DNA from: Halopseudomonas phragmitis
GTDB lineage: Bacteria > Pseudomonadota > Gammaproteobacteria > Pseudomonadales > Pseudomonadaceae
Assembly: GCF_002056295.1 (NCBI RefSeq)
Contig: NZ_CP020100.1
Span: 2,751,501-2,815,500, forward strand
Length of the DNA stretch: 64,000 bases
Direction: 5' to 3'
The position numbers and the translations under genes were made by a program. The notes beneath the pieces are model-generated. The model saw nothing but the letters and a program-made list of their open reading frames with translations. It had not been told where the DNA came from and searched no databases. Positions 2,903-60,530 of the stretch are shown here, piece after piece. Each line of letters starts with the position of its first letter. The stretch's first letter is position 1.

Positions 2903-3022
2903 ATGAGTGAACACGACCTACAGGAAGCCACAACAACCGACAGCCGGATCGATGCCTGGGCCGCGGTGGCGCTGATTCTGATTGCCGTGCTGACAGCAGT
3001 GTTTTGGGTCAGTCAGCGCTAG
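2903..3022 (+). CDS. Small single-span membrane protein, 39 aa
   Basis: A short frame beginning MSEHDLQEATT and ending WVSQR. Residues 1-17 are polar and acidic. Residues about 18-36 form one hydrophobic helix (WAAVALILIAVLTAVFWV), giving a likely C-terminal single-span inner-membrane peptide. An AGAGGA-like ribosome site sits about 8 nt upstream of the ATG. It is divergent from cysI across 263 bp, and its 3' side runs into the palindromic repeat at 3062. Function unknown. The size, start signal and clear helix make it more credible than a random frame. Confidence 0.6.
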   Translation: MSEHDLQEATTTDSRIDAWAAVALILIAVLTAVFWVSQR

Positions 3023-3049
3023 GACAACACTGACTAATCGCGCACAAGC

Positions 3050-3186
3050 CCTGGAGCCCTGTTGGCGCTGACCTGTTCTGGACTGTCGATGCCCCGGATG
3101 GGCATCGTCAAGCCCCCAGGGACGGGGTTACGGCGTGTCCAGAACAGGTCAGCGCCAATTGGGCTAACACCGAAACTGAAATCAGT
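3050..3186 (-). repeat. Dispersed nested-palindrome element, copy 1
   Basis: Outer arms of 22 bp at 3062-3083 and 3137-3158 are perfect inverted repeats. Inside, GATGCCC (3088-3094) pairs with GGGCATC (3100-3106). The total palindrome is 97 bp. The minus strand of this copy aligns with the plus strand at 60355-60495, including the flank CAGTTTCGGTG. It fills the gap between the convergent 39-aa gene and the DUF2970 gene, starting about 14 nt after the latter's stop. It contains no gene. It may act as a terminator or be a mobile palindromic repeat. Confidence 0.85.
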
Positions 3187-3199
3187 ATTTCCATAGGGG

Positions 3200-59348: not shown

Positions 59349-60349
59349 TGCAATCCGATCGCTGGACGGAAGGCCCGATGGTCACTCGGGATGAGGCGGA
59401 CAAGGCCAAGGAAGACAAGAAGGCCTGGGAGCTGTTGGAAAAGGCCGTGCTGGCCTCGGTGCAAGAGCAGCGCCGGGCTCGGCGTTGGGGTATTGTGTTC
59501 AAGACCTTGACCTTCGTTTATCTGTTTGGCGTGGCGTTGCTGTTCTCGCCAATGATCGGCGTTGAAGGGCGCAAGGCCTTGAATGTGCCGCATACGGCGG
59601 TGATTGAGGTGCGAGGCATGATTGCCGACCGTCAGGAGGCCAGTGCCGACAACCTGGTCACCAGTCTGCGTCGCGCCTTTGAAGACGAAAATACCCGCGG
59701 TATTGTTCTGCGTATCAACAGTCCGGGCGGTAGTCCGGTTCAGGCGGGCTATGTCTATGATGAGATCAAGCGCCTGCGTGCACTGAATCCGGCGGTGCCG
59801 GTTTATGCGGTGATTACCGATCTCGGAGCATCTGGTGCTTATTATATAGCTGCAGCGGCTGATGCCATTTATGCCGACAAGGCCAGTCTGGTTGGGTCTA
59901 TCGGGGTAACAGCGGCCGGTTTTGGTTTTGTCGAGGCGCTGGACAAGCTGGGGATTGAGCGGCGTAGCTATACCGCTGGTGAGCACAAGTCATTCCTGGA
60001 CCCGTTCCAGCCTGAGAAGCCGGAAGAGCGACAGTTCTGGCAGGGTGTTCTGCAGACCACGCATCAGCAGTTCATTGAGCAGGTCAAAGCGGGGCGCGGC
60101 GAGCGGCTCAAAGAGCATCCGGATCTGTTCAGTGGTCTGGTGTGGTCTGGTGAGCAGGCGCTGGAGCTGGGGCTTGTTGATGGTCTGGCCAGCACCTCAA
60201 GTGTGGCCCGTGATGTGGTAGGAGTCGAAAAGATTGAAGACTTCACTTACCGTGAATCACCATTCGAGCGCTTTACCAAGCGCCTGGGGACCAGTATCGG
60301 TAATGCGCTGGCCACTCAGCTAGGCTTGAGTGGTCCGGTGCTGCGCTAG
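59348..60349 (+). CDS. sppA: Signal peptide peptidase SppA
   Basis: 333 residues, the short 36K-type form. N-terminal anchor helix (IVFKTLTFVYLFGVALLF), then the ClpP/crotonase-like peptidase fold with GIVLRINSPGGSPVQAG and the nucleophile Ser in ITDLGASGAYYIAAAAD; the general-base Lys is in YTAGEHKSFLDPF. Cleaves remnant signal peptides at the inner membrane. One-base overlap with the HAD gene; ends just before repeat copy 2. Confidence 0.93.
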   Translation: MQSDRWTEGPMVTRDEADKAKEDKKAWELLEKAVLASVQEQRRARRWGIVFKTLTFVYLFGVALLFSPMIGVEGRKALNVPHTAVIEVRGMIADRQEASADNLVTSLRRAFEDENTRGIVLRINSPGGSPVQAGYVYDEIKRLRALNPAVPVYAVITDLGASGAYYIAAAADAIYADKASLVGSIGVTAAGFGFVEALDKLGIERRSYTAGEHKSFLDPFQPEKPEERQFWQGVLQTTHQQFIEQVKAGRGERLKEHPDLFSGLVWSGEQALELGLVDGLASTSSVARDVVGVEKIEDFTYRESPFERFTKRLGTSIGNALATQLGLSGPVLR

Positions 60350-60354
60350 GGAAG

Positions 60355-60495
60355 CACTGATTAAATCAGTTTCGGTGCTGGCCCAATTGTCGCTGACCTG
60401 TTCTGGACACGCTGTAAATACATCCCTGTACGCTCTTAGATGCCATCCCTGGCATCTAACGGTCCAGAACAGGTCAGCGCCAACCGGACTACTGA
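60355..60495 (+). repeat. Dispersed nested-palindrome element, copy 2
   Basis: Outer arms at 60387-60408 and 60462-60483 (22 bp, one mismatch) give a 97-bp palindrome, the same span as copy 1. The inner hairpin is TAGATGCCA (60437-60445) with TGGCATCTA (60450-60458). The flank CTGATTAAATCAG (60357-60369), itself palindromic, and CAGTTTCGGTG are shared with copy 1. Begins directly after the sppA stop and fills the sppA-maf convergent gap. Confidence 0.85.
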
Positions 60496-60530
60496 GCTTG
60501 CGTGCAATTAATCAGCGTGTCTCAAGGCGC

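What the first reader, a model, noticed from the sequence alone, without database searches (positions are those of the whole stretch)
3062..3158. Nested 97-bp palindrome copy 1, sharing structure with a second copy 57 kb away
Seen directly: 22-bp perfect outer arms, an inner GATGCCC/GGGCATC hairpin, and a minus strand that aligns with 60387-60483 in both arms, span (97 bp each) and 5' flank (CAGTTTCGGTG). In both copies the inner stem pairs, with A:T in one replaced by C:G in the other (GATGCCA/TGGCATC versus GATGCCC/GGGCATC), suggesting the structure is maintained. Both fill gaps between convergent genes and both sit in the same orientation after a gene stop. Inference: a non-autonomous mobile palindromic repeat (MITE- or REP-like), possibly also acting as a transcription stop.
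Basis: partly seen in the sequence, partly recalled or inferred. Interest (0 to 1): 0.65.

Follow-up and report, generated by a model that had tools for sequence, protein, structure and literature searches.

The report
Mobile palindromic repeats folding as RNA
The palindrome belongs to a folded two-hairpin element present at least 46 times in this genome and in many other gamma-proteobacteria, here spread by a small mobile DNA repeat, and its hairpin tips look like docking sites for the global RNA regulator CsrA/RsmA.

Summary
The two copies are 170- and 173-bp mobile elements (3023-3192; 60350-60522) with ~15-bp terminal inverted repeats, each beginning at a CTAG that holds a stop codon. At least 46 places in the genome carry the core. 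The core is an older, wider element: two hairpins closed by long complementary arms, locus-specific in many genomes, shared within others. It occurs in 72 of 370 sampled genomes of the class, often as alternating doublets. Pairing covaries strongly. In the arms G.T mismatches far outnumber A.C, so one strand, with GGA in the loops, is kept foldable. The loops fit the CsrA/RsmA site CANGGANG, the GGAs usually 20 nt apart. Closest known family: Rfam TwoAYGGAY (RF01731), proposed in 2014 to bind CsrA; 8 of 8 RF01731 loci fetched from the genus are this element (47 matches listed), but the window genome has no RF01731 match. RAYT linkage and terminator function were tested and not supported. Best reading: a transposon-borne, multi-copy TwoAYGGAY-like RNA element, probably bound by RsmA/CsrA. 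Transcription and binding are untested; orientation shows no clear sense bias, and copy 1's best predicted fold is not the two-hairpin form.

The parts
3019..3022 (.). CTAG left of copy 1; holds the TAG stop of the 39-aa ORF 2903-3022; fits a YTAR target (right flank 3193-3196 is ATAG, not identical)
3023..3192 (.). MITE copy 1, 170 bp, terminal inverted repeats 3023-3037 and 3178-3192 (3 mismatches each to GGAAACACTGATTAA)
3062..3083 (+). outer arm 1 of copy 1 (perfect 22 bp)
3137..3158 (+). outer arm 2 of copy 1
3067..3153 (+). covariance-model match (74.3 bits, E 4.1e-13), GGA strand is +
3088..3106 (+). inner hairpin 1 GATGCCC-CGGAT-GGGCATC
3114..3127 (+). inner hairpin 2 CCCC-AGGGAC-GGGG (not in the MFE fold of this copy)
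60346..60349 (.). CTAG left of copy 2, includes the TAG stop of the sppA-like gene (right flank CAAG, not identical)
60350..60522 (.). MITE copy 2, 173 bp, terminal repeats 60350-60364 (1 mismatch) and 60508-60522 (3 mismatches)
60387..60408 (-). arm of copy 2 (one mismatch to its partner)
60462..60483 (-). other arm of copy 2
60392..60478 (-). covariance-model match (97.9 bits, E 1.4e-18), GGA strand is -
60436..60459 (-). inner hairpin 1 of copy 2, loop AGGGAT on - strand
60419..60430 (-). inner hairpin 2 of copy 2, TAC-AGGGAT-GTA on - strand

Best explanation
Two layers. (1) Shown: a MITE family of this genome and its nearest relatives, mostly 170-174 bp (about 250 or 301 bp with extra modules), with ~15-bp terminal repeats like GGAAACACTGATTAA and a preference for YTAR targets. 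CTAG, TTAG, CTAA and TTAA contain TAG or TAA, which would explain why copies often sit on stop codons (inferred). (2) Shown: its cargo is an older element spread across Gammaproteobacteria, with a conserved core of about 59 nt (GACCGT - hairpin 1 - RAGC - hairpin 2 - YTYRYRGCGTGTC) inside complementary arms, 16-36 bp in most measured cases. Pairing is better kept on one strand, the GGA strand. Inferred: that strand is transcribed, and its two CANGGANG-type hairpins, GGAs 20 nt apart, bind a CsrA/RsmA dimer, so copies act as dispersed RsmA/CsrA-binding sites (local mark downstream of genes, or a collective sponge). It works like a TwoAYGGAY/Csr-type RNA spread by transposition.
For: Copy number: 37 model matches in G000 plus 9 long-form copies outside that list. 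Target duplication: 13 of 39 TIR pairs with identical 4-mers (12 of 36 without overlapping alternatives; 11 of the 13 are YTAR) against 2.9 when partners are shuffled and 1 of 39 for the next outer 4-mers; YTAR on the left of 22 and the right of 20. Insertion: the sppA-maf distance is -3 to 26 bp between fixed marks in 23 of 29 relatives seen. Structure: 16 diverse copies, 98.5% cells paired vs 71.9% shuffled, covariation 0.740 vs 0.214; 120 distinct copies, 95.2% vs 62.4%, 0.772 vs 0.190. One-strand selection: in 24 arm pairs, G.T 74, A.C 5, other mismatches 53 (56 of 80 elements) and G.T 146, A.C 33, other 134 (82 of 122); GGA strand the more stable in 68 of 75 and 101 of 116. Loops: hairpin 1, not part of the search pattern, has GGA in 85 of 87 and CANGGANG in 67 of 87, background 1.05% of 30-mers. 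GGA-GGA gap 20 nt in 61 and 21 nt in 9 of 75, within published CsrA bridging of 10-63 nt, optimum >18 (PMC7652899, passage); consensus (A/U)CANGGANG(U/A) (PMC6692469, PMC6849547, passages). CsrA in 37 of 37 genus genomes. 8 of 8 fetched RF01731 loci are R1 matches, one weakly. Divergent gaps: 10 of 111 gaps with an element vs 54 of 169 without, Fisher p 4.7e-6.
Against: Singles between tandem genes show no clear sense bias: 27 sense, 20 antisense. G.T wobble also forms in single-stranded DNA, so the asymmetry does not prove RNA; related elements are not independent. For window copy 1 the best RNA fold of the GGA strand (-69.5) is not the two-hairpin form (-62.7); two GGA hairpin loops are in the MFE fold of only 47 of 75 and 62 of 116 elements; 10 of 87 elements had no hairpin 1 of 5 bp by my finder. 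CsrA is also in the 9 genus genomes where one search found no element, so its presence does not discriminate. No exact-TIR pair at transposon length in 37 genomes: mobilising enzyme unknown. Neither window copy has an identical 4-bp duplication. The gene caller was crude. No expression or binding data.
Confidence: 0.5

Rival explanations
1. The core is a single-stranded DNA hairpin recognised by an unidentified transposase or HUH-type enzyme (REP/REPIN-like selfish DNA); the loops are enzyme contacts and there is no RNA function.
For: Doublets alternate: 35 of 42 in -+ order, 4 of 5 quadruplets -+-+; G.T wobble is tolerated in ssDNA; no clear sense bias; quick turnover between sister genomes.
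Against: Y1-transposase (PF01797) loci do not carry it: 1 weak hit (E 0.11) in 30 loci. PF01797 is present in 7 of the 9 genus genomes without a model match and absent from 3 that have one (G004, G006, G026). Loops match CANGGANG with 20-nt spacing; overlap with RNA family RF01731.
Confidence: 0.27
2. A MITE whose palindromic cargo has no function of its own; arms stay complementary by template-switch correction and copies share history.
For: Target duplications and many copies in this genome; three compensated pairs within 4 nt between sister genomes (L389/L087) look templated; palindromes are lost at orthologous places (L085, L026).
Against: Template-switch correction would not favour G.T over A.C on one strand (reasoning); loop and core kept across genera while stems vary; no such terminal repeats were noticed by eye around the printed gamma copies, only 26 nt of flank seen.
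Confidence: 0.15
3. A bidirectional transcription terminator or 3'-end stabiliser between genes.
For: Under-represented in divergent gaps; very stable stems.
Against: T-runs after 2 of 202 elements on the GGA strand and 8 of 202 on the other, background 2.1%; a plain stem would not need conserved loops.
Confidence: 0.08

Closest known systems
Rfam RF01731 TwoAYGGAY RNA (clan CL00106)
   Same: Two tandem GGA-loop hairpins, an AAG linker, CGG...CGUC 3' part, external stem (alignment; stem 'not well conserved' in PMC4333381, passage); 8 of 8 fetched RF01731 loci of the genus (of 47 matches) are R1 matches; CsrA binding proposed (PMC4333381, passages)
   Different: Window genome has no RF01731 match at E<=1; window loops are AGGGAY or CGGAT, not AYGGAY; repetition, doublets and MITE carriage are not mentioned in the passages read
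CsrB/RsmX/RsmY/RsmZ sponge RNAs
   Same: GGA in hairpin loops, sites in pairs
   Different: Dispersed repeats between genes, two sites each in the basic form, closed by long arms; not compared by any search here
IS5-type MITE (target rule YTAR recalled, from no call)
   Same: Terminal repeats, 4-bp YTAR duplication, no long ORF, many copies
   Different: Carries a covarying RNA-like cargo; partner transposase not found
REP/REPIN/BIME with RAYT
   Same: Extragenic palindromes in alternating doublets
   Different: No linkage to Y1 transposases in the 30 loci tested; larger two-hairpin core with long arms

Membership tests
RF01731 TwoAYGGAY | score at or above Rfam gathering threshold (43 bits) | tested here: not met
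   No match in the window or in G000 at E<=1. Relatives: 6 of 47 listed matches over threshold, in 3 of 37 genomes, so some members of the wider element qualify
RF01731 TwoAYGGAY | two hairpins with AYGGAY loops | tested here: not met
   Window loops are CGGAT, AGGGAC (copy 1) and AGGGAT, AGGGAT (copy 2); many gamma copies do have ATGGAT
CsrA/RsmA-binding RNA | paired CANGGANG hairpins at bridging distance | tested here: met
   for the wider element; copy 2 fits in both loops, copy 1 only in hairpin 2 and not in its best fold
CsrA/RsmA-binding RNA | binds CsrA/RsmA | not testable with these tools
   no binding data
IS5-type MITE | terminal inverted repeats with 4-bp target duplication YTAR | tested here: met
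   13 of 39 identical vs 2.9 shuffled, 11 of the 13 YTAR; the two window copies themselves do not have identical flanks
IS5-type MITE | autonomous partner with the same ends | tested here: inconclusive
   no exact-TIR pair at transposon length in 37 genomes; inexact ends were searched in the own genome only
REP/REPIN | linked or co-distributed RAYT transposase | tested here: not met
   30 loci of the PF01797 matches tested
Intrinsic terminator | stem followed by T-run | tested here: not met

The most novel reading that the evidence does not exclude
Gammaproteobacteria carry a transposable, genome-wide network of RsmA/CsrA-binding RNA elements: tens of dispersed copies downstream of genes, often in alternating doublets so that a transcript from either side carries one GGA-strand copy, tie ongoing transcription to titration of CsrA, and a MITE has captured and spread one lineage of them.
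Probability: 0.27. Interest if true: 0.87.

Novelty: new variant of a known kind. Interest (0 to 1): 0.62.

Why it matters
TwoAYGGAY was still called a family of unknown function in 2014, with CsrA binding offered as a hypothesis (PMC4333381, passages). Finding that it overlaps a multi-copy, doublet-forming and in one lineage MITE-borne repeat of many gamma genera, with strand-specific pairing, gives that hypothesis dozens of natural test sites per genome. It also raises the possibility that mobile repeats tune the load on a global RNA regulator.

Tried and rejected
RAYT/REP linkage: PF01797 in 32 of 37 genomes, but 30 of its loci gave one weak model hit. Intrinsic terminators: T-runs at background level. 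Arms copied from local flank on insertion: not supported at the one locus looked at; the sppA-maf distance is -3 to 26 bp in 23 of 29 relatives, too short to have supplied an arm, and longer in 6. Known Rfam family at threshold: none in the window; weak hits to unrelated families ignored. Plasmids, phages, E. coli: no match with two, one and one query copies, a weak test because cores and arms diverge. Literature: the searches showed no listed title or abstract start naming such a repeat; they cover open-access texts only, and long lists were cut (40 of 133 shown, 25 of 490). Papers seen: passages of PMC2864571, PMC4333381, PMC11701678, PMC4383904, PMC6692469, PMC6849547, PMC7652899; the other papers only as listings.

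Limits of the counts. Searches scored only 14 and 12 candidates per genome with stricter filters, one search scored 150 of 1274, so copy numbers are floors; 87 distinct elements; one search dropped 2 cut and 4 duplicate rows, and its spacing count covers 75 of the 77 with a hairpin. One search used 56 of 80 and 82 of 122 elements (distinct arms, GAC/GTC in place, enough flank); of 202 elements 161 were placed between genes, 35 were at an edge or too far, 6 inside predicted genes; 39 rows include three overlapping alternatives; 9 orthologous pairs chosen. One search recounted the arms: of 93 matches 78 measured, 64 of them 16-36 bp, 13 shorter, 1 longer, 15 unresolved.

Full report
WHAT IS THERE. 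The two palindromes exist as described. Searching the genome (4,035,153 bp, one contig; window = 2751501-2815500) with the 153-nt stretch gave 106 matching pieces. A covariance model built from 16 diverse copies (R1) found 37 places, and nine further copies with long inserts (L012, L014, L018, L020, L021, L024, L031, L032, L036) are not in that list, so at least 46 places carry the core; not all of them have the MITE ends. The genus is taken to be Halopseudomonas: contigs of same-genus genomes have the lengths of named records (G005:C18, 91,159 bp = L246 Halopseudomonas formosensis; G021, 3,338,867 bp = L252 'Pseudomonas saudimassiliensis'; G022:C17, 560,781 bp = L219 Pseudomonas sp. WN033).

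OUTER LAYER, A MITE. Many copies in this genome end in GGAAACACTGATTAA-like inverted repeats. Of 39 TIR pairs (36 without overlapping alternatives) 13 (12) have identical flanking 4-mers, against 2.9 when partners are shuffled and 1 of 39 for the next outer 4-mers; YTAR is on the left of 22 and the right of 20. YTAR as the IS5-group target is recalled, not looked up. At the sppA-maf gap 23 of 29 relatives have -3 to 26 bp between fixed marks; the sister genome G022 has a different MITE-like insert there, G036 an element with its own arms, and four others 55-77 bp of other sequence. At copy 1 G022 keeps only the right end of the element. The exact terminal repeat occurs in 9 of 37 genus genomes and shows no pair at transposon length, so the mobilising enzyme is not known.

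INNER LAYER, A WIDESPREAD STRUCTURED ELEMENT. In many relatives only the core is shared, while the arms differ from place to place and stay complementary; in this genome and in Xanthomonas sets of copies share arms. R1 matches 72 of 370 sampled genomes of the class, the window's own included, 62 of 273 genera, 28 of 37 genomes of the genus and 43 of 298 of the family. Of 93 pattern matches 78 had a measurable arm, 64 of them 16-36 bp. One or two query copies found nothing in plasmids, phages or E. coli, and the exact pattern only two stretches in viral contigs.

STRUCTURE. On 16 copies 98.5% of cells pair (shuffled 71.9%) with covariation 0.740 (0.214); on 120 distinct copies 95.2% (62.4%) and 0.772 (0.190), with 30 of 33 pairs showing changes on both sides. 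The second alignment was made with the model, which leans towards the structure; the arms were not part of the pattern that found most of these loci. Reading 24 arm pairs outwards without alignment, on the GGA strand: G.T 74, A.C 5, other mismatches 53 (56 elements, genus and family) and G.T 146, A.C 33, other 134 (82 elements, wider); elements related by descent are not independent. The GGA strand folds more stably in 68 of 75 and 101 of 116. Upkeep of a double-stranded palindrome predicts no such strand difference; RNA, or one strand of ssDNA, does.

LOOPS. Hairpin 1 was not in the search pattern. It has GGA in 85 of 87 distinct elements and CANGGANG in 67 of 87, background 1.05%. The GGA-to-GGA gap is 20 nt in 61 and 21 nt in 9 of 75. 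CANGGANG is the RsmA/CsrA site (PMC6849547, PMC6692469, passages), and CsrA bridges sites 10-63 nt apart with optimum above 18 (PMC7652899, passage). CsrA is in 37 of 37 genus genomes, including the 9 without an R1 match, so presence alone does not discriminate.

AGAINST. Window copy 1's best RNA fold on the GGA strand is a different one (-69.5 against -62.7 for the two-hairpin form); copy 2 folds as expected. Only 47 of 75 and 62 of 116 elements have two GGA loops in the single best fold, and 10 of 87 had no hairpin 1 of 5 bp by my finder. Singles between tandem genes are sense 27, antisense 20. RNA is therefore favoured, not shown.

CONTEXT. Of 161 placed elements 49 are convergent, 100 tandem, 12 divergent (crude gene caller). 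By gap of 80 bp or more, divergent gaps are 10 of 111 with an element and 54 of 169 without, p 4.7e-6. Of 143 clusters 95 are single, 42 double, 6 larger; 35 of 42 doubles run -+, so a transcript crossing such a doublet from either side meets one GGA-strand copy. T-runs after the element are at background level.

KNOWN RELATIVES. Rfam TwoAYGGAY (RF01731) is the closest. In the genus it has 47 listed matches in 13 of 37 genomes at E<=1, 6 of them over threshold in 3 genomes, and none in the window genome; the 8 RF01731 loci that were fetched are all R1 matches, L303 weakly (29.8 bits). The RMfam paper proposed CsrA binding for TwoAYGGAY, speaking of Clostridia (PMC4333381, passages); the 2010 table lists it as human gut, gamma-Proteobacteria, Clostridiales (PMC2864571, passage). 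I therefore do not file the window copies as members at Rfam's threshold, but say they work like that RNA. Repetition and mobility were not mentioned in the passages read.

NESTED MODULES. Between sister genomes, L031 (own) and L371 (G022) differ by two inserts of about 50 and 78 nt placed just before the GGA of each loop. Similar-looking inserts (judged by eye) stand in L239, L220 and L063. They carry further hairpins. Their meaning is open.

Noticed in passing
L031 positions 211-575 vs L371; also L032, L063, L220, L239: Extra hairpin modules (about 50 and 78 nt) sit immediately before GGA in the loops, present or absent between orthologous loci; similar-looking inserts occur in other gamma genera.
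   Followed up: partly
window 60350-60522 ortholog in G022 (L336): The sister genome has a different MITE-like insert with ends like GGAACCTCTGAA at the same sppA stop codon.
   Followed up: no
window 2903-3022: 39-aa ORF (MSEHDLQEATT...) without Pfam match; DNA over its region matches in G022, G032 and G005.
   Followed up: no
L296 10635-13115 (IMG/VR contig): Two copies near ORFs that look, by eye only, like a Mu-type transposase and a phage repressor; may be host flank.
   Followed up: partly
L389 vs L087; L386 vs L109: Orthologous copies with clustered paired changes, or a different core in the same flanks (27 differences), suggesting template-switch or gene conversion between copies.
   Followed up: partly
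L184 3117-3740: Four same-orientation copies in tandem at about 180-bp spacing in a Saccharophagus MAG, unlike the usual alternating order.
   Followed up: no
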